Source: Tuwongella immobilis (GTDB lineage Bacteria; Planctomycetota; Planctomycetia; Gemmatales; Gemmataceae). Taken from it: a DNA stretch of 64,000 bases. Location of the stretch: assembly GCF_901538355.1 (NCBI RefSeq), contig NZ_LR593887.1:4192920-4256919 (forward strand). Direction: 5' to 3'. A program made the position numbers and the translations under genes. The notes under the pieces were generated by a model, which saw only the letters and a program-made list of their open reading frames with translations, was not told where the DNA came from and searched no databases. Shown here one piece after another: positions 4,611-42,333 of this stretch (position 1 is its first letter; each line of letters starts with the position of its first letter).

Positions 4611-6584
4611 ATGCGTTCTCGCAGACATTGGCTTGGAATCACGGCCCTGATCGCGGCGCTTGCTGTCACGCATCTTGTGATGGATTCAGGATTTGCGGCG
4701 GACTCGCGTGCCCCATCCGCCACGACCGAATCGCTCCCGCCCGGCTCGAAGGATGTGCCGCCGCTGCCGAAATCGCCCGCCGACCGTCAGCCGCCCCGAC
4801 CGCTCGATGCAATCGTGATGACGGATCTGCATGGGGCATTGCACGACTTGCATCAGAATGATTATCGACGGGTGCGCATCTTCGTGTTTCTCTCGACGGA
4901 ATGCCCGATTGCGAATGCGATGCTGCCCACGCTCAATGCGTTGCACAACCAATGGAACGCGAGCAAGCGGGTGGAATGCTTCGGCGTGCTGGCCGATCGT
5001 GGGGTCACTCGCCAGAAAGCAGTCCAGCATTTCGCCGAATATGCGACGGATTTCCCGATTTTGTTCGATGCCTCCGATCTGCTTCGCCAGCGTTTGCAGC
5101 CGACGCATGTGCCGCAAGCCGTTGTTGTGAATGCGGATGGGGCGATTGTCTATTCGGGTGCCATTGACAATGCTTGGGAGTCGCTCGGTCGTCGTCGAGT
5201 GAAGGCGGAGAAGACGTATCTGGCGGACGCGGTGACGGCGACGCTGGCCGGTCGTGCGGTGGCGGTGCCCAAAACCGAGCCAGTGGGATGCCTCATCGAG
5301 CGGGAGCCGCTGGGGATTGCCACTGGCGAGGTGACGTATACTCGGGACATCGCGCCGATTTTGGCGGCCCGCTGCATCAACTGTCATCGCGACGGTCAAG
5401 CAGCGCCCTTTCCGCTGACATCGTATGAACATGCGGCCAAGCGAGCGTCGCAAATCGTTCGGGTGACACGAGATCGGCTGATGCCACCTTGGATTCCCGC
5501 ATCGGGGCACGAGCGATTTGTCGGGGAACGCTGGTTGAGCGATGCCGAACTTGCCTTGTTCCAACGCTGGGCAGAATCCGGCCGCGCTCGGGGCGACGTC
5601 GCGGAGTTGGCCCCGCTGCCGAAATTCGCCGAAGGCTGGCTGCTGGGCAAACCGGACCTGATTGTCCGCATGCCCAAGCCGTTCACCGTGCCCGCCGATG
5701 GCCCGGATTTGCTGCAAAACTTTGTCATTCCCATCGATATTCCGGGGGATCGCATGGTGGCAGCGATTGAATTTCATCCGGGGAACAAACGAGTCGCCCA
5801 TCATGCCGTTCTGTTTCTGGACGAAAGCGGCCAAGCGCGAAAGCTAGACGCCGCCACTCCCGAACCGGGCTACGCGAATTTCGGCGGCCCCGGCTTCCTG
5901 CCCAGTGGTGCGCTCGGCGGTTGGTCGGTGGGCAATACCCCGCGAGCGCTGCCCAACGGCATGGGGCGGTATCTGAAGAAAGGGTCGGATTTGGTGGTGC
6001 AAATGCACTATCACCCCACTGGAAAAGTCGAAACCGATCAATCCGAAGTGGGCATCTTTTTCGTGAAGGAATCCGTTGCCGATTTATTGAAACAATCGGC
6101 GAAGTTGGTGGGAAGTATGTGGGTTGCCAACTACGAAATGGATATTCCCGCGGGGGCCAGCGACTACCGCCGCTCAACGCGCTACACGCTCCCCAAGGAG
6201 GTGATCCTCGTCGGCGTGGTTCCCCACATGCACTTGCTCGGCAAAACCATGCGGGTGACCGCCAAACTCCCCGATGGCAAACAACGGACATTGATTGATA
6301 TTCGAAATTGGAACTATAATTGGCAGGATGAATACTATTTCGAGCAACCATTTCGACTTCCGAAGGGAACCACGATTGAAGTGGATGCGAGTTTCGATAA
6401 TTCAGCGAAGAACCCCGTGAATCCCAATTCGCCGCCCAAGCGCGTGACCTGGGGGGATGGGACTACCGATGAAATGCTGTATTGTTTCTTTCTGATGACC
6501 GCCGATCGGTCGAGTGATCTGGTGCAGGTCATCTTGGATAATCTGCGTCACGACAGTCGACAACCCCGCAAAGCATTGGATTGA
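4611..6584 (+). CDS. Secreted redoxin / cytochrome c / copper type II monooxygenase-like fusion protein
   Basis: A 657-residue exported multidomain redox protein. Residues 1-31 form a signal peptide. A peroxiredoxin-like domain follows with a single-cysteine site in STECPIANAM (about residues 98-107). A c-type heme motif CINCH sits near residue 258 in PILAARCINCHRDGQAAPF, with a later LMPPW. The C-terminal half has the layout of ascorbate-dependent copper monooxygenases: His397-His398, His466-x-His468 and His539-Met-His541 are placed like copper ligands of peptidylglycine hydroxylating monooxygenase, although the fit is by motif only. The ribosome-binding site GAAAGGAC precedes the start. A TetR gene begins four bases after the stop, so this gene is probably the head of a three-gene unit. 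Substrate unknown. Confidence 0.83.
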   Translation: MRSRRHWLGITALIAALAVTHLVMDSGFAADSRAPSATTESLPPGSKDVPPLPKSPADRQPPRPLDAIVMTDLHGALHDLHQNDYRRVRIFVFLSTECPIANAMLPTLNALHNQWNASKRVECFGVLADRGVTRQKAVQHFAEYATDFPILFDASDLLRQRLQPTHVPQAVVVNADGAIVYSGAIDNAWESLGRRRVKAEKTYLADAVTATLAGRAVAVPKTEPVGCLIEREPLGIATGEVTYTRDIAPILAARCINCHRDGQAAPFPLTSYEHAAKRASQIVRVTRDRLMPPWIPASGHERFVGERWLSDAELALFQRWAESGRARGDVAELAPLPKFAEGWLLGKPDLIVRMPKPFTVPADGPDLLQNFVIPIDIPGDRMVAAIEFHPGNKRVAHHAVLFLDESGQARKLDAATPEPGYANFGGPGFLPSGALGGWSVGNTPRALPNGMGRYLKKGSDLVVQMHYHPTGKVETDQSEVGIFFVKESVADLLKQSAKLVGSMWVANYEMDIPAGASDYRRSTRYTLPKEVILVGVVPHMHLLGKTMRVTAKLPDGKQRTLIDIRNWNYNWQDEYYFEQPFRLPKGTTIEVDASFDNSAKNPVNPNSPPKRVTWGDGTTDEMLYCFFLMTADRSSDLVQVILDNLRHDSRQPRKALD

Positions 6585-6588
6585 TGGG

Positions 6589-7212
6589 ATGAATGAGACG
6601 GAATCACGCCTGTTGGATTGTGCACTCACCTTGTTTGCCCAAAAAGGCTACGAGGCGACGAGCGTGCGCGAAATCATCGAAGCCACCGGCGTGACCCGTC
6701 CTGTGCTGTATTATTACTGTGAGAATAAAGCCTCGCTCTTCAAACGGCTGATCGCCTGGAAGCATGATGAGGCCAACGCGGAACTTCAACGGATCTTGCA
6801 ACAGCAACTCACCTGCGAAGGGCGACTGCGGGCAATCGTGCGCGGCTCATTCGCCTTCTGCGCCCAAGATCCACGCGTGCCCCGATTGATGTTCCAGACC
6901 GCATTTGGGCCGATGATCGCCGATTTGGCCGAATTTCTGCTCGAACGCTCCCGCGATCGCTTTCTGATTGTCTTACAAATCATCCATGCCGGGCTGACCG
7001 AAGGTGAACTGCACGGCGGCGACCCGACCGCGCTGGCGTTGGCCTTCTGCTCGCTGATGGACCATCACATTAACATTCTTTCTCGCTTTGATGATGTGGC
7101 CGTGCGGTTGACCCCGGAATTGGCCGATGCCTTGGTCGATCTGTTTCTGCATGGTTGCGGCACGCCGGCGAGCGCGCCGTTGCGATTTCCGCCATCGGTG
7201 GCGGTGGCATGA
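6589..7212 (+). CDS. TetR family transcriptional regulator
   Basis: A 207-residue repressor-type protein. The N-terminal helix-turn-helix is clear: ALTLFAQKGYEATSVREIIEATGVTRPVLYYYCENKASLF, residues about 10-50, matching the TetR DNA-binding pattern. The remainder is a helical ligand-binding/dimerisation domain resembling TetR C-terminal domains. The start at 6589 lies four bases after the monooxygenase-like stop; its ribosome-binding site is weak, suggesting translational coupling. Its last codons overlap the start of the McrC-like gene in an ATGA arrangement. It may autoregulate this unit, but no operator was recognised upstream of 4611. Confidence 0.9.
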   Translation: MNETESRLLDCALTLFAQKGYEATSVREIIEATGVTRPVLYYYCENKASLFKRLIAWKHDEANAELQRILQQQLTCEGRLRAIVRGSFAFCAQDPRVPRLMFQTAFGPMIADLAEFLLERSRDRFLIVLQIIHAGLTEGELHGGDPTALALAFCSLMDHHINILSRFDDVAVRLTPELADALVDLFLHGCGTPASAPLRFPPSVAVA

Positions 7213-8417
7213 CCGCGCGGCGGCGAATTCGACTGGTCGAACGACGCACCCAGCGGGTTCGACTGCCAGGCCGAATCGTTCAACAGTTGCACATCCATCT
7301 TGGCCCAAAAATCCGAATCCTCCCCGATGGCGGCTCCAATGTCTGGCAGATTACCCCGTTGGGAATCGCCGGTCGCGTGGTGATTGACGATTGGCAGATC
7401 GAGATTGCCCCGAAATTGTCCCGCATCGCCGTCGCACAGTTATTCCAAGTCACGGAATTCGAGCCGACCGCGCCGTTCCGCAATCCAGCCGAGGCGGAAT
7501 CGGAGACGGAATCCGAAGGCGGTTTCTGGCTGAATCTACTGGCATGCCAATTCGCAGGCCGGATGCAAGCATTGGCTGCGGCTGGATTTGCCACCGTAGA
7601 CCGACTCACGCCCGAAATCGAATCCCATCTGCGTGGCTCGATCGATCTCCCGGCCCAACTTCGGCAACCCAGCCCATACCCGACGCAATTCCATCAGCAA
7701 ATCTGGCAGGCATCGCACGATTACCCCGTTGGCCAAATCGCCAAAACGGTCGCCCAGTGGTTGTTGGCATTTCCCGAACTCACCGCCGCTTCGCGTGCCC
7801 GGCTAGGTGCCAGTTTGCGGGACTTTGCCGACTTTTCCGAGATGCGAAATCCGCGACTCGCGCTCGATGATTGCCTCGCTCGCCCGTTGCGCTTGGTGGA
7901 GCGAGCCTGCCTGGAAAGCTGCCGCGACTTGCTGAGCGGTGCGTTGGCTCCGGGTTGTTTTTGGCTGGATCTGGAATCCGCCTGGGAACGGTGGATCACG
8001 GGACAACTCCGCGAGGTCGCCGAATCGGCAGGGCATTCCGTGGCGGCGCAATCGGCCTGCGAACTGCCGCCCATCGATGGCAGCAGCCCCACGATGCGGC
8101 TGATTCCCGATGTCGTGATCCGCACCGCTGGCGGTCGCATCGTCGTGGTGGATGCCAAGTGGAAATCCGGCCCGGTCGAATCATCCGATTTGCATCAAAT
8201 TCTTGCCTATGTGCAACGGATGGGAGCGGAATCGGGGCATCTGCTCTACCCCGCGCATCGGGCCAAGCATCACGCCTGGAGTTGCTCGCCGCCGCCGATG
8301 ATGGCCGATTCGGAGTCGGCGAAATGGGTTGGAGCGCATTGGCTGCCGTTGGTGGGAAGTTCCTCGCGGGTTCGGCAAGGGGTTCGTCGTTGTCTGCAAA
8401 CGATCCTTCGCGGTTGA
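7209..8417 (+). CDS. McrC-like restriction nuclease subunit (orphan, no McrB nearby)
   Basis: A 402-residue protein resembling McrC, the nuclease subunit that works with the McrB GTPase to cut DNA containing modified cytosine. The C-terminal PD-(D/E)xK core is intact: IPDVVIRTAGGRIVVVDAKWK near residues 297-317 supplies the Asp, Asp and Lys, followed by DLHQILAYVQRMGAESGHLLYP as in McrC. The N-terminal part, with GPKIRILPDGG and NVWQITPLG, matches the beta-rich McrC entry domain. The start overlaps the TetR stop by four bases. No McrB AAA+ GTPase is encoded anywhere in the window. It could act with a distant McrB, or in another role with the upstream genes. Confidence 0.75.
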   Translation: MTARRRIRLVERRTQRVRLPGRIVQQLHIHLGPKIRILPDGGSNVWQITPLGIAGRVVIDDWQIEIAPKLSRIAVAQLFQVTEFEPTAPFRNPAEAESETESEGGFWLNLLACQFAGRMQALAAAGFATVDRLTPEIESHLRGSIDLPAQLRQPSPYPTQFHQQIWQASHDYPVGQIAKTVAQWLLAFPELTAASRARLGASLRDFADFSEMRNPRLALDDCLARPLRLVERACLESCRDLLSGALAPGCFWLDLESAWERWITGQLREVAESAGHSVAAQSACELPPIDGSSPTMRLIPDVVIRTAGGRIVVVDAKWKSGPVESSDLHQILAYVQRMGAESGHLLYPAHRAKHHAWSCSPPPMMADSESAKWVGAHWLPLVGSSSRVRQGVRRCLQTILRG

Positions 8418-8543: not shown

Positions 8544-8647
8544 AGAGCATCCATCTTGAACCTTGCGCACATCGCATGCGTCCTCTATGTGGCCGCCCGC
8601 CGATGTCCGCGTGGGGCCAACGCGACCACTACAGAAAGGCACATCGT

Positions 8648-9283
8648 ATGTCTGCTGGGCAGTACTCGGCTCTCGATGCGAGCGTGTTGGTCTTGAACCG
8701 ACTGTTCTTGGCCGTTCACGTGATCTCCGTCCGACGAGCATTTTGTTTGTTGGCGAAGGAATTGGCCGAGGTGGTCACGTTGGACGACGGCCAATTCGCT
8801 ACCTACGACTTCGCATCCTGGTTGGAAGTCAGCCAATATCGGGCGCAACACTTCCGCCAAGAAGATGACGACTGGGTTCGCACCGCCACCATGGAAGTGC
8901 AAGCCCCCCGCGTAATTCGCCTGCTGAGCTTCGACAAGGTCCCCAGGCAAACGATTAAGTTCAACCGTCGAAACATCTTCGCCCGCGATGGCAACCAGTG
9001 CCAATACTGCGGCAAGAAGTTCCCGACATCGGAACTGTCGCTGGACCACGTCATTCCGCGAAGCCAGCGTGGGGACACGAGCTGGGAAAACATCGTCTGC
9101 GCCTGCGTGGACTGCAACGTCCGCAAGGGGGGCCGCACCCCGAAACAGGCCCACATGACGCTAATCCGCAAGCCGGAAAAGCCGAAGCGTAGCCCGCTGC
9201 TGAATATGAAGCTCAACCAGAAGAAGTATCAGTCCTGGCAGTCGTTCATCGACAACGCCTACTGGTCGGTTGAACTGAAATAA
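8648..9283 (+). CDS. HNH endonuclease
   Basis: A 211-residue stand-alone HNH nuclease. The zinc-anchored core runs from about residue 114 to 165: CQYC (Cys118, Cys121), LDHVIPRSQRG with catalytic Asp133-His134, WENIV with Asn148, and the second metal-binding pair in CVDCNVRKGG (Cys153, Cys156). The start at 8648 has the ribosome-binding site GAAAGG. The N-terminal 100 residues are specific to this family and include no other recognised domain. It stands alone with its own promoter and a hairpin terminator. No methyltransferase or mobile element is adjacent, so a restriction or homing role is not supported. DNA repair or housekeeping roles are possible. Confidence 0.88.
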   Translation: MSAGQYSALDASVLVLNRLFLAVHVISVRRAFCLLAKELAEVVTLDDGQFATYDFASWLEVSQYRAQHFRQEDDDWVRTATMEVQAPRVIRLLSFDKVPRQTIKFNRRNIFARDGNQCQYCGKKFPTSELSLDHVIPRSQRGDTSWENIVCACVDCNVRKGGRTPKQAHMTLIRKPEKPKRSPLLNMKLNQKKYQSWQSFIDNAYWSVELK

Positions 9284-11401: not shown

Positions 11402-12769
11402 TTATCGCAAATCCGGCTGCTCGAATTGGGCCGATTCGCCACGGGCGGCGCAGATTACCTCAGCGGCGCGATAGCCACTGCGAACCGCCCCTTCCATCGT
11501 CGCGGGCCAGCCGGTGAGCGTCCAATCGCCGGCCAGCACGAGCGACGGAATCGCCGTCACCTGCGGCGCACGCAGCGCATCCACGCCGGGCACCGCGCTA
11601 AAGGTAGCGGTCATTTCCGTGATCACTCGGGAGCGCAACACCTTGGCATCACTGGCTTTGGGGAGCAGTCGCTGTATTTCGGCGGTGATGGCTCGCTCCA
11701 CCTCCGCGTGTCCCTGATTGCGAAGCTCCCGACTCGCACTCACCACGACTTGAACGTAATGCCCACCGGCCGCATCTTCCCCTCGATCGAAAATCCACTG
11801 CCCCAGACAATCGATCAGCACCAGATGCGGATAGTCCATCACCGCACGATCGTACCAAAGATGCACACTCGTGATCGGCGACGGCGTGAGTTCGGGCACG
11901 CGGGCCATGCTCGGCAGTTGCGACCGCATCGCCTCGGGGATCATCTCAACAACTCGATCAAACGGAACCGCGAGAATCACCCGATCGGCGGGAAGCGTCT
12001 CCCCAGTTCGAAATTGCACGCCGATCGCGCGCCCATCGGCAAATTCCACCTGGCGGACTCCCTGCCCCAGTCGCACCGTCACGCCGTGCTGGGACAGCCA
12101 CCCTTGCAGTTCCTCGCCATACAAGCGGCCCAACGGCACCGTCGGCACTTGCACTTCAAAGGCTTTGCGATGTCGTAAGAAGCCATCCAGAAACACTTTG
12201 CGCGCGTACTTGGTGCCAACTCGCTCGACCGTTTCGTTGAGCGCGCTGGTCAGCACCAGCCCCCAGAATCGCGTGATTGTGCGATCATTTTGCCCATGTC
12301 GTTTCAGCCACGGCAACAGCGGCTCATCGGCATCCGCAGACAATCGCATCAATGCCAGCATGCCACGCACCAGCCGCAGCTTATCCGTAAAGGTCAGATA
12401 GTGCGCGGCAAGCAGTGCCCGACTGAGGTGGAACGGGGCGGGTACCGGATCGGCAGCGAATCGGCTGATGCGGCGATCCGGCGTCATAAACCAAAGCACT
12501 GGTTGCGGTTGCAGAAAGCGATCGACGCCGATGGTCTGACTGAAATGCGCCAGATTCGTGCAGCAGCCCATGCTAACATGCTGACAGGCATCGAGCAATT
12601 GTCCGGTGGTGGCGTCGTGGAACGAGCTGGCCCGTCCACCGAGGCGATTGCGCGATTCCAATAGGGTGATGCGGTGGCCACGCGGCGCGAGTGCGATTGC
12701 GGCTGCGAGTCCGGCCAATCCCCCGCCGACAATCACGATGGATTCGCGGGTCGCTACGGGGCTGGTCAT
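11402..12769 (-). CDS. hpnE: Hydroxysqualene dehydroxylase HpnE
   Basis: A 455-residue FAD-dependent amine oxidase-fold enzyme that reduces hydroxysqualene to squalene, the last step of the HpnCDE route. The N-terminal Rossmann motif IVIVGGGLAGLAAAIALAPRG is followed by RLGGRASSFHDATTGQLLDACQHVSMGCCTNL, which is characteristic of HpnE rather than of phytoene desaturases. The C-terminus contains LAGDWTLTGWPATMEGAVRSGYRAAE, the FAD-closing motif. Its ATG overlaps the hpnD stop (ATGA at 12766-12769), so the two are translationally coupled. It is the third gene of the hpnC-hpnD-hpnE operon. Confidence 0.94.
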   Translation of the reverse strand: MTSPVATRESIVIVGGGLAGLAAAIALAPRGHRITLLESRNRLGGRASSFHDATTGQLLDACQHVSMGCCTNLAHFSQTIGVDRFLQPQPVLWFMTPDRRISRFAADPVPAPFHLSRALLAAHYLTFTDKLRLVRGMLALMRLSADADEPLLPWLKRHGQNDRTITRFWGLVLTSALNETVERVGTKYARKVFLDGFLRHRKAFEVQVPTVPLGRLYGEELQGWLSQHGVTVRLGQGVRQVEFADGRAIGVQFRTGETLPADRVILAVPFDRVVEMIPEAMRSQLPSMARVPELTPSPITSVHLWYDRAVMDYPHLVLIDCLGQWIFDRGEDAAGGHYVQVVVSASRELRNQGHAEVERAITAEIQRLLPKASDAKVLRSRVITEMTATFSAVPGVDALRAPQVTAIPSLVLAGDWTLTGWPATMEGAVRSGYRAAEVICAARGESAQFEQPDLR

Positions 12770-13737
12770 GGCTTCGGAACCTCAAGGGATGCAACAGGTT
12801 GCGATGCATTCGCGGATTGCGACACAGTCGCGGCAGGTTGCGACGCATTCGCGGCGTGGCGATTCGCTCGCATGCCCCAGCGGGTCGGGAATGCCTCGAT
12901 GAGATACCGCATTTTCTGCCACTTCGGCAACCGCACACGCTGCGAAAAGACATCTCCGCGCCGGGCGACGATCGCCTCCAGCAACCCGCGATAGGTGCGA
13001 TCCATGACGCTGAAAATCGCTTGTCCCTCCACACTCAAGCGAGAGTACAATGGCTCGCTCAGTGCGTAGAATTGGCGGGCACGATCGACTTGGAACGCGA
13101 ACAACGCCTGATAGTTGGCCGATTCGACCTGCCAATTGTCTGGAGTAGCGTGGAATCGTGCTAACTCGTCTTGTGGCAAGTAGATGCGTCCGTTGGCCAA
13201 ATCTTCGCCCAGGTCGCGCAGGATATTCGTGAGTTGGAATGCGATTCCTGCTGGCTCCGCGTAACCGATCGTCGATTCGCCGCGAAATCCCCAGATGTGA
13301 ATGCTGGCCAGACCGACTGCCGACGCGACCCGATAACAATAGGAATACAATTCGGGAAAGGTGGCAAACGTCGGCATCGATAAATCCATTTCGACACCGT
13401 CGATGACATCGAATAGATACTTCGGCGGCACCCCGTAGCGCTGCAAGACGGTGTGCAGCGCAGGCATGATCGAATGCCGATAGATCCCGCCAAGCGCATC
13501 GTGCAGTGTCTCTCGCCACTGGTCGAGTCGATCGGCCTTGGTATCGAGATCGCCGGCTTCATCTGCAAGATCGTCGGTATGTCGCATGAAAGCATAGAGC
13601 ACCTGCATCGCCTCGCGCCGTCGCCGCGACAGCACCTGAAAGGCGAGCGTGAGGTTGCTGCCGGAGCGTCGCACCAGCGAACGACAGAACGATTGCGAGC
13701 GAATGCGTTGGCATCCGGGGCTGAACGATTTCATCAT
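12766..13737 (-). CDS. hpnD: Presqualene diphosphate synthase HpnD
   Basis: A 323-residue trans-isoprenyl diphosphate synthase (head-to-head) that condenses two farnesyl diphosphates to presqualene diphosphate. It has both aspartate-rich motifs: FMRHTDDLADE (about residues 50-60) and NILRDLGEDLANGRIYLP (about 172-189), which bind the diphosphates through magnesium. The start at 13737 lies six bases after the hpnC stop, with GGGGGA as ribosome-binding site. The last 35 residues are a low-complexity tail with two NASQP units, probably disordered and not typical of the family. Order and spacing with hpnC and hpnE support the assignment over phytoene synthase. Confidence 0.94.
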   Translation of the reverse strand: MMKSFSPGCQRIRSQSFCRSLVRRSGSNLTLAFQVLSRRRREAMQVLYAFMRHTDDLADEAGDLDTKADRLDQWRETLHDALGGIYRHSIMPALHTVLQRYGVPPKYLFDVIDGVEMDLSMPTFATFPELYSYCYRVASAVGLASIHIWGFRGESTIGYAEPAGIAFQLTNILRDLGEDLANGRIYLPQDELARFHATPDNWQVESANYQALFAFQVDRARQFYALSEPLYSRLSVEGQAIFSVMDRTYRGLLEAIVARRGDVFSQRVRLPKWQKMRYLIEAFPTRWGMRANRHAANASQPAATVSQSANASQPVASLEVPKP

Positions 13738-13743
13738 CCGCGG

Positions 13744-14676
13744 TCATCCCCCGAAGCCGCGTCCCGACCAGCGTCGAGCCACCGCCCCCAGCAGCATCCA
13801 TCCCTTGGAAAACGCACTCACTTCGGGCCGCATCGCCCAGACGTTGTAGTAAATGCGTTCAATTTGCTTCAGAATCGCCAACCCACCGCGCATGAATAAA
13901 TCGACTTCAATGGCACAATCGCGGGGCACTCGACCGACCAACGGCATTCCCCGGTACAGCAATTCGCGGGCACGTTCGACTTGATAGCGCATTAACGACA
14001 CGAACGCCCGATTGTAGCGTTTCTCGCGGAAGTCTTGTTCGCTATAGCCGAACCGCTGTCGATCTTCCTCGGGCAGATAGATTCGGCCAATCGCCTTGTC
14101 GCGGGCGACATCTTGCCAGAAGTTCGCCAGTTGCAATCCGGTGCAGATGGAATCCGACAGCGCGGCCGATTCGGGGTCAAACGATCGGAATAGATACAGA
14201 ATCAGGTGCCCGACCGGATTCGCGGAATAACGACAATACTCCAAGAGTCGATCATACGTGGAATACTGCGTGACGAGCTGATCCTGCTCGAAGGCGTAGA
14301 GCAGATCCAAAAACGGCTGCGGCGGAATCTGATATTCGCGAATGACCGGCTGCAGCGCAATCATCACCGGATGCCAAGCGTACCCTTCGTAACAATCGAG
14401 CAGTTCCCGCCGCCACCAGCGGAGCAGTTGCAGCGAGTTGGCCCCACCTCCGGTTTCATCACCCAGGTCATCCGCCCAGCGGCAATACGCATAAATCGCC
14501 GCGAATGGCTTCCAGAGCCGCCGGGGGAGAAGCAGCGAGGAAACCGTGAAATTTTCGGCATGCGATCGCAGAAAATGATCGCAATATCGCTGCGCACGCC
14601 CCAAGCTGATCGGCAATTGATGCCGAGCCTGCGACGGACCATATTTCGCCAAGTGTGCCGCAAAAGAGTATCGCAT
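13744..14676 (-). CDS. hpnC: HpnC, hydroxysqualene-forming squalene synthase-like enzyme
   Basis: A 310-residue squalene/phytoene synthase homologue that converts presqualene diphosphate to hydroxysqualene. Motifs: YCRWADDLGDE (first aspartate motif, near residues 64-74) and LANFWQDVARDKAIGRIYLPEED (second). RSHAENFTVSSLLLPR at the N-terminus is typical of HpnC. I chose the ATG at 14676 because a promoter-like TTGCTC/TACACT pair ends seven bases before it and the protein then begins MRYSFAAHLAKYGP; the longer frame to 14757 would run through the promoter. The transcript may therefore be leaderless. First gene of hpnCDE. Confidence 0.93.
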   Translation of the reverse strand: MRYSFAAHLAKYGPSQARHQLPISLGRAQRYCDHFLRSHAENFTVSSLLLPRRLWKPFAAIYAYCRWADDLGDETGGGANSLQLLRWWRRELLDCYEGYAWHPVMIALQPVIREYQIPPQPFLDLLYAFEQDQLVTQYSTYDRLLEYCRYSANPVGHLILYLFRSFDPESAALSDSICTGLQLANFWQDVARDKAIGRIYLPEEDRQRFGYSEQDFREKRYNRAFVSLMRYQVERARELLYRGMPLVGRVPRDCAIEVDLFMRGGLAILKQIERIYYNVWAMRPEVSAFSKGWMLLGAVARRWSGRGFGG

Positions 14677-14683
14677 GACCGAT

Positions 14684-14711
14684 AGTGTACCGCACAGCGA
14701 CTCTTGAGCAA
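14684..14711 (-). promoter_or_regulatory. Promoter of hpnCDE, overlapping the larE promoter
   Basis: On the minus strand TTGCTC (14711-14706) and TACACT (14689-14684) are separated by 16 bases. Transcription would start at or close to the hpnC ATG at 14676. The -35 box shares the sequence TTGAGCAA with the larE promoter on the other strand. Confidence 0.5.
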
Positions 14712-14732
14712 GCGTCGATTGCGTTCTATACT
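14704..14732 (+). promoter_or_regulatory. Promoter of larE
   Basis: TTGAGC (14704-14709) and TATACT (14727-14732) with an ideal 17-base spacer, upstream of the larE start at 14776. A TTG at 14704 would open a longer larE frame, but it is part of this -35 box and is rejected as a start. Confidence 0.65.
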
Positions 14733-14775
14733 GGCGAACAGGAATTTGCGAACGCATCGAGGTCGCCGCGATCCC

Positions 14776-41274: not shown

Positions 41275-42333
41275 TTGGAAACGCAGCAAACCCTTGGTCA
41301 AAGCGATCTGCAAGCAATGGAAAAGCTGCAGGGCGCATTCCAGAATCTTCGGCAGCAGCTCTCGCGTGTCATCGTCGGTCAAGACTCGGTGATCGAAGAG
41401 TTGCTGATTGCTCTGTTCAGCAAGGGGCACTGCATTCTGGAAGGGGTGCCTGGGCTGGCGAAGACGTTGATGATTTCAACGCTGGCCCGCTGTTTGTCGC
41501 TGGATTTCAGCCGCATTCAGTTCACCCCGGACTTGATGCCCGCTGACATTACCGGCACGGAAATCATCGAAGAAAATCGCACCACTGGCGCTCGGGAATT
41601 TAAGTTTCTCCCCGGCCCGTTGTTTGCCAACATCGTTCTGGCCGACGAAATCAACCGAACGCCGCCCAAGACGCAAGCCTCGCTGCTGGAAGCCATGCAA
41701 GAGCGTCAGGTGACGGTCGGCCGCGTCCGCCACAAGCTGTCCAATCCGTTCTTCGTGCTGGCCACGCAAAACCCCATTGAACAAGAAGGCACCTACCCGC
41801 TGCCGGAAGCGCAACAAGACCGCTTCATGTTCAAGGTGTTTGTGCGCTACCCCAGTTTCAGCGAAGAATTTGAAATTGCCCGCCGAACCACCAGCACCCA
41901 AGTCGATGAAATCACCCCGGTGCTGACGGGTGAGCAGATCATGGAATTGCAGCAGATCGTTCGCCGCGTGCCGGTGTCCGATCACGTGATCCAGTACACG
42001 CTGGCGTTGGTTCGCCAAACCCGGATCACCGAACCCGGCGTGCCCAAGTTCGCTCAAGAGTGGCTGTCGTGGGGTGCTGGCCCGCGTGCGGTGCAGAACC
42101 TCATTCTTGCGAGCAAGGCCCGTGCGCTGCTCTATGGTCGGGGTCATGTCCAGACCGAAGACATTAAAGTCTTGGCCTACCCCGTGTTGCGTCACCGGAT
42201 TCTGACCAACTTTGCCGCCACTTCCGAAGGCATCACCACCGATAAGGTGATTCAAAAGCTGCTGGAAGAAACGCCGGATAAAGAAGGCGAACTGCAAAAG
42301 CATGAACGGCTGAAGAAAATCTTCGCCGGTTGA
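41275..42333 (+). CDS. MoxR family AAA+ ATPase
   Basis: A 352-residue AAA+ chaperone-type ATPase. MoxR proteins help fold or assemble partners carrying VWA domains. Walker A is GVPGLAKT with the family's Gly-rich form, Walker [11 protein letters not shown], sensor 1 [22 protein letters not shown], and sensor 2/arginine-finger region [22 protein letters not shown]. The start is ambiguous: TTG at 41275 has GGAG six bases upstream; TTG at 41251 and ATG at 41317 are alternatives. DUF58, BatA-like and VWA proteins follow, the standard MoxR neighbourhood. Confidence 0.93.

What the first reader, a model, noticed from the sequence alone, without database searches (positions are those of the whole stretch)
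7209..8417. Orphan McrC-type nuclease coupled to a TetR regulator and a redox fusion protein
Seen: an intact PD-(D/E)xK core and McrC-like ends; an ATGA overlap with a TetR gene, which itself starts four bases after a redoxin/cytochrome/copper monooxygenase-like gene. No McrB GTPase is present. Known: McrC normally needs McrB and is encoded beside it. Inferred: either a new two-part arrangement in which nuclease expression follows a TetR ligand, or a McrC acting with a distant McrB.
Basis: partly seen in the sequence, partly recalled or inferred. Interest (0 to 1): 0.55.

Follow-up and report, generated by a model that had tools for sequence, protein, structure and literature searches.

The report
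DNA-cutting enzyme with a distant partner
This gene encodes the cutting half (McrC) of a known two-part bacterial enzyme that destroys foreign DNA; it looked like an orphan because its probable motor half (McrB) sits 2.3 million bases away on the same chromosome, and the regulator gene beside it is probably a chance neighbour in this lineage.

Summary
In detail: 7209-8417 encodes an intact 402-aa McrC (Pfam McrBC, 74.6 bits; PD...DxK invariant in 34 of 34 aligned proteins; solved McrC structures are the best fold matches), overlapping a TetR gene by ATGA; no McrB lies in the window. The preferred interpretation fails. The genome's only McrC has a McrB 2.31 Mb away on the same chromosome: 942 aa, helical N-terminus + DUF2461 + GTPase with intact Walker motifs and NxxD. 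In 95 family genomes the two co-occur (34 both, 4 McrB only, 3 McrC only, 54 neither); 26 of the 34 pairs lie within 10.1 kb. Their trees agree (partial Mantel given RpoB 0.79). The TetR was found in 1 of 94 other genomes, not beside McrC; the redox neighbour is a common multi-copy gene. At least three other genomes also have separated halves. So this is a dispersed McrBC with a DUF2461-type McrB seen, in our samples, only in one planctomycete family: a new variant of a known kind. Joint action of the distant halves, the DNA mark recognised and any TetR control are inferred, not shown. Side finding: an uncharacterised protein family often lies between McrB and McrC in relatives.

The parts
7209..8417 (+). 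McrC-type endonuclease, 402 aa; the only PF10117 gene found in the genome
8106..8165 (+). PD-(D/E)xK catalytic core (P300 D301 ... D315 A K317 W K319)
   Evidence: invariant in 34 of 34 aligned McrC proteins; same order as E. coli McrC Asp244/Asp257/Lys259 named in PMC6624300
7209..7212 (+). ATGA overlap of TetR stop and McrC start
   Evidence: allows translational coupling (inference)
6589..7212 (+). TetR-family regulator, 207 aa; lineage-specific neighbour, probably not part of the enzyme
   Evidence: TetR_N 1.5e-14; 2 of 95 genomes at 1e-12
4611..6584 (+). redoxin / cytochrome / copper-monooxygenase-like protein, 657 aa; common multi-copy gene, not part of the system
   Evidence: Pfam matches below cut-off; 94 of 95 genomes, 5 copies here

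Best explanation
The gene is the nuclease subunit of an McrBC-type (Type IV-like) restriction enzyme whose two genes have come apart. Its partner is the DUF2461-type McrB at G000:C1:1887384-1890212, 2.31 Mb away. Most likely mechanism: McrB (helical N-terminal part + DUF2461 + AAA+ GTPase) recognises a DNA feature through its N-terminal part and forms a GTP-driven ring; McrC, made from another locus, docks its activating N-terminal domain in the ring and stimulates GTP hydrolysis, and its PD-DxK domain cuts the DNA. In this lineage the mcrC gene came to lie behind a TetR gene, so its expression may follow that regulator. Shown here: gene content, intact motifs, co-occurrence, adjacency in relatives, tree agreement, predicted McrC fold. 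Inferred: binding of the two distant products, GTP-dependent cutting, defence role, and any TetR control.
For: McrC identity: (profile hits TgMcrC 7e-29 and EcMcrC 3e-19). The only PF10117 gene in the genome. McrB found: AAA_5 + DUF2461, E. coli McrB GTPase 1.3e-40 over 251 residues, Walker A GVPGTGKT, DEINRGN, NxxD = NGAD. Co-occurrence 34/4/3/54 among 95 genomes, Fisher 7e-18 not corrected for relatedness. Of 34 genomes with both, 26 carry them within 10.1 kb on one contig, 25 of these on one strand. In the RpoB tree the sister lineage G005 has the two genes side by side. McrB and McrC distances correlate 0.93, and 0.79 after removing RpoB distance, 27 genomes (0.75 in a thinned set of 19). 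NxxD is intact in all 31 aligned McrBs whose genome has a window-like McrC, this genome included; the two degenerate ones (G030, G089) are in genomes without one.
Against: No direct evidence that the two products meet or that either is expressed. This McrC has the longest branch of its tree (about 2.2 changes per column, unsure placement) and is 23-31% identical to relatives, so relaxed constraint or a changed role is possible. The activating basic residue (EcMcrC Lys157 / TgMcrC Arg263) could not be aligned with certainty. Three genomes have McrC without a strong McrB hit and four the reverse, some in broken assemblies. Nineteen of the 95 genomes belong to one genus, so the Fisher value overstates independent evidence; partial Mantel p values are known to be optimistic (recalled).
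Confidence: 0.8

Rival explanations
1. A TetR-controlled nuclease acting without McrB: TetR senses a ligand and releases expression of a stand-alone McrC-like nuclease.
For: ATGA overlap and close spacing make co-expression plausible; the McrC is divergent.
Against: An McrB with intact motifs is in the genome. TetR pairing is not conserved: 2 of 95 genomes have the TetR at 1e-12, the other one not beside its McrC; no TetR homologue in the fetched McrC/McrB loci. A sigma-70-like site inside the redox gene (6291-6320) is one of 3 found where 1.8 are expected by chance.
Confidence: 0.07
2. A decaying remnant: the pair was split by rearrangement and one or both halves are drifting out of use.
For: Very long McrC branch; degenerate McrB copies exist in relatives without a window-like McrC (G030, G089); dispersal occurred in other lineages too.
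Against: Both reading frames are full length without stops; PD-DxK, Walker A, Walker B and NxxD are all intact.
Confidence: 0.1
3. McrC works with the distant McrB, and TetR-coupled transcription has added a real new control layer: the nuclease half is induced separately from the motor half. (A special case of the best explanation, so the two confidences overlap.)
For: Physical arrangement only: a four-base gap and ATGA overlap.
Against: Arrangement seen in one genome only; no operator identified; no expression data.
Confidence: 0.25

Closest known systems
McrBC of Escherichia coli / Thermococcus gammatolerans (solved complexes 6hz4, 6ut6, 6ut5, 6ut7)
   Same: McrC fold and PD-DxK core; McrB GTPase with Walker A/B, NRGN/NRAN and NxxD.
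   Different: Genes 2.31 Mb apart instead of one operon; McrB N-terminus is about 400 mostly helical residues + DUF2461, with no Pfam match to the E. coli N-terminal family.
CoCoNuT systems (Bell et al. 2024, PMC11090510; outline, sections 7 and 14 and passages read)
   Same: Also McrBC relatives with unusual fused domains.
   Different: Those have NxD GTPases; this one has NxxD. Term searches of the main text gave no glycosylase, HhH or Planctomycetes, and the census used neighbourhoods of 10 genes on each side, with only manually annotated orphans added.
LlaJI and other McrBC-related systems with other recognition domains
   Same: McrB-like NTPase + McrC-like nuclease (review passage, PMC12707154).
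   Different: LlaJI carries a B3 recognition domain and two methyltransferases; neither was seen in the genes examined here.

Membership tests
McrC (PF10117) | PF10117 match over curated cut-off | tested here: met
   74.6 bits against 23.9
McrC (PF10117) | PD-(D/E)xK catalytic residues | tested here: met
   P300 D301, D315, K317 invariant in 34 of 34
McrC (PF10117) | N-terminal McrB-activating domain joined to the nuclease | tested here: met
   Foldseek best five are McrC chains, 303-447 alignment columns; profile hit spans 48-334 of 389 on TgMcrC. Fold only; activation untested
McrBC restriction system | McrB-type AAA+ GTPase with NxxD signature in the same genome | tested here: met
   942-aa McrB at 1887384-1890212
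McrBC restriction system | mcrB and mcrC encoded together | tested here: not met
   2.31 Mb apart here; within 10.1 kb in 26 of 34 genomes with both
McrBC restriction system | N-terminal modified-base-binding domain on McrB (E. coli type, DUF3578) | tested here: inconclusive
   No such Pfam match; DUF2461 part shows only weak fold similarity to the E. coli McrB DNA-binding domain (3ssd Z 4.3, 126 aligned, 4.1 A)
McrBC restriction system | GTP-dependent cleavage of modified DNA | not testable with these tools
   needs biochemistry
CoCoNuT | NxD GTPase motif | tested here: not met
   NGAD, i.e. NxxD
TetR-McrC two-part module | conserved TetR-mcrC pairing | tested here: not met

The most novel reading that the evidence does not exclude
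This planctomycete family keeps a largely vertically inherited McrBC subtype that can work in trans: the motor-sensor half carries a new recognition module (a helical part, perhaps an inactive DNA-glycosylase-like fold, plus DUF2461), often with a third gene family with an N-terminal membrane-like helix between the two halves, and in several lineages the halves have separated so that nuclease supply and sensing are regulated independently, here through a TetR operon.
Probability: 0.2. Interest if true: 0.6.

Novelty: new variant of a known kind. Interest (0 to 1): 0.4.

Why it matters
It shows that 'orphan' McrC genes can be halves of scattered systems, which neighbourhood-based defence annotation would miss; PADLOC gave no hit to this McrC. 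It also points to a McrB recognition module, DUF2461 plus a helical domain; no paper in the searched library holds both the words DUF2461 and McrB.

Tried and rejected
TetR-nuclease module: rejected for lack of conservation.

Glycosylase-like N-terminus of McrB: the model (pLDDT 86.7) gives 8-oxoguanine glycosylases as weak fold matches for residues 7-216 (3knt Z 6.8) and 222-385 (3n0u Z 7.0), below the tool's own caution level for helical proteins. A conserved 'GxGxxFW' stretch (G123, G125, W129) looks to me like a helix-hairpin-helix (recalled motif). Sequence tests failed: no Pfam HhH-GPD match at E 10, the McrB not among the genome's PF00730 matches, and hhalign against four own-genome HhH-GPD proteins scored no better than three unrelated controls (the hhalign part had failed because of wrong strands and a file-format error). 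Kept only as a lead. The strong fold match of the DUF2461 part is DUF1054 (2a8e Z 16.2).

Distribution: at 1e-8 the McrB N-terminal part matched only this genome, plus two with the DUF2461 part alone, among 392 phylum genomes; the listing shows no other member of the family in that sample. The genome-contig scan with McrB found six loci matching the GTPase part only, so it named no close relative.

A third gene ('X') was considered as a needed component: this genome has two matches, best 1.1e-15, against 1e-97 to 1e-193 for copies beside McrBC genes, so X does not seem required here.

Corrections: one search read all 12 AAA_5 loci on the plus strand, so six minus-strand ones were read wrongly; the search of the whole genome with the McrB protein covers this gap (one other, weak match). 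The first RpoB tree held three wrong-frame rows (G009, G085, G113); one search replaced it with strand-checked sequences. Rows dropped before counts: McrC rows of 250 aa or less and McrB rows of 400 aa or less, plus G035 and G084 (another McrB type); G022 and G114 had no RpoB match, so 27 of the 29 shared genomes entered the Mantel test. 'Strong McrB' is my choice of 38 of the 47 genomes that tallied; the McrB and McrC lists were copied by hand.

Papers: PMC11090510 outline, sections 7 and 14 and passages; PMC7680126, PMC6624300, PMC12707154 and PMC8567305 passages only. Searches on orphan McrB/McrC, on McrBC with Planctomycetes or Gemmata, and on DUF2461 showed no relevant report in their listings.

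Full report
What is there. The window lies at 4192920-4256919 of a single 6.69 Mb contig. Genome size and general gene content suggest a Gemmataceae planctomycete, probably Tuwongella immobilis; a passage of PMC8567305 gives that species 6.7 Mb, but the name was not tested. ORF 7209-8417 encodes a 402-aa McrC: PF10117 at 74.6 bits, catalytic P300 D301 / D315 x K317 invariant in 34 of 34 aligned proteins, model with pLDDT 89.3, five best PDB matches all McrC, and an alignment profile that hits TgMcrC at 7e-29 and EcMcrC at 3e-19. The TetR overlap and four-base spacing are as reported.

The missing McrB is in the genome. PF10117 finds one McrC in the whole genome. A search with AAA_5 gave 81 matches; one of the 12 fetched as loci has the McrB signature, DEINRGN and GTMNGADRS. 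It is a 942-aa protein at 1887384-1890212 with AAA_5 at 683-836 and DUF2461 at 419-631, matching the E. coli McrB GTPase at 1.3e-40. A search of the genome with this protein gave, besides itself, one weak match at 4.4e-4. The two genes are 2.31 Mb apart. Neighbours of this McrB are a subtilase/FG-GAP gene upstream and TPR and PT-HINT genes downstream, with no McrC.

Do they belong together? I searched 95 genomes of the family for McrB and McrC. Counting 38 genomes with a strong McrB hit and 37 with a window-like McrC: 34 have both, 4 McrB only, 3 McrC only, 54 neither; Fisher p 7e-18, and 2e-18 with PF10117 as the McrC criterion (36/2/5/52). These p values ignore relatedness; 19 of the 95 genomes are one genus. 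Of the 34 genomes with both, 26 have them within 10.1 kb on one contig, 25 of those on one strand; this genome has them 2.31 Mb apart; 7 have them on different contigs, of which G009, G036 and G022 must be at least 203, 22 and 15 kb apart, and four cannot be decided. In G005, sister to this genome in the RpoB tree, the two reading frames meet directly, though McrC is cut by a contig end. Separation is therefore probably derived, and may have happened about four times (inference).

Trees of McrB and McrC recover many of the same groups, e.g. {G022, G027, G010, G036, G082}, {G085, G088} and the two large genera. Patristic distances correlate at 0.93; with RpoB distance removed, 0.79 (27 genomes) and 0.75 (19 genomes), permutation p 0.0002 in each case. 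McrB distances also follow RpoB (0.93), so the system seems mostly inherited vertically. The NxxD motif is intact in all 31 aligned McrBs whose genome has a window-like McrC, including this one. Of the four without, two are degenerate (G030; G089, a single-contig genome that carries another McrBC pair) and two are intact but lie about 0.5 kb from a contig end (G061, which has His in place of the Arg after the motif, and G113). This fits continued selection for McrC partnership here.

The TetR link. At E <= 1e-12 the TetR is found in 2 of 95 genomes, this one and G082 on another contig than its McrC. No homologue of it was found in the fetched McrC or McrB loci of relatives. The redox gene has relatives in 94 of 95 genomes at 1e-60, with five copies here; seven of its closest relatives have no TetR or McrC in the flanks held, some of which are short. 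The redox-TetR-McrC order is thus known from this genome only. Co-transcription remains possible, but there is no sign of a selected module.

What kind of McrB. The N-terminal 662 residues model well (pLDDT 86.7): helical to about 395, then DUF2461, which resembles DUF1054 structures (Z 16.2, 14.3) and, weakly, the E. coli McrB DNA-binding domain (Z 3.8-4.3, several entries of what I take to be one protein). The helical part has weak DNA-glycosylase matches that sequence tests did not support. In 392 genomes of the phylum only this genome has the whole N-terminal part; two others match DUF2461 alone.

Mechanism. From solved McrBC (passages of PMC7680126 and PMC6624300): McrC inserts a basic residue at the McrB active site, repositions the NxxD asparagine and stimulates GTP hydrolysis, and its nuclease domain cuts. 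The residues on the McrB side are present here; the McrC basic residue could not be placed with certainty, although arginines lie next to the aligned position. What DNA mark is read is unknown.

Verdict. A good observation whose preferred reading does not hold: an McrBC whose halves are dispersed, with a McrB architecture not named in the papers searched. New variant of a known kind; interest moderate, because trans operation is likely but untested.

Noticed in passing
L041:8352-11159, L037:7521-13679, L036:9255-12394, L029:4874-7713 (relatives; not in the window): A roughly 450-530 aa protein family without Pfam match, with what looks like an N-terminal membrane helix, lies in 1-4 copies between McrB and McrC, or beside one of them, in many relatives. 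It also occurs in genomes without this McrBC, e.g. 13 matches in G001; this genome has only two weak matches.
   Followed up: partly
L071:2575-5286 (G030) and L077:5073-7532 (G089): DUF2461-type McrB with degenerate GTPase motifs in genomes without the matching McrC.
   Followed up: partly
window 8576-9283: HNH endonuclease gene downstream of mcrC on the same strand (HNH_5 1.9e-15, weak IscB-like match).
   Followed up: no
window 41428-41826: MoxR-type AAA_5 gene, not McrB.
   Followed up: partly
window 11402-14757, minus strand: Three genes that look like an HpnC/D/E-type squalene cluster (recognised from memory, not tested).
   Followed up: no
L034:11115-12164: Gene with a PT-HINT (pretoxin HINT) domain, the second ORF examined downstream of the distant McrB.
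   Followed up: no
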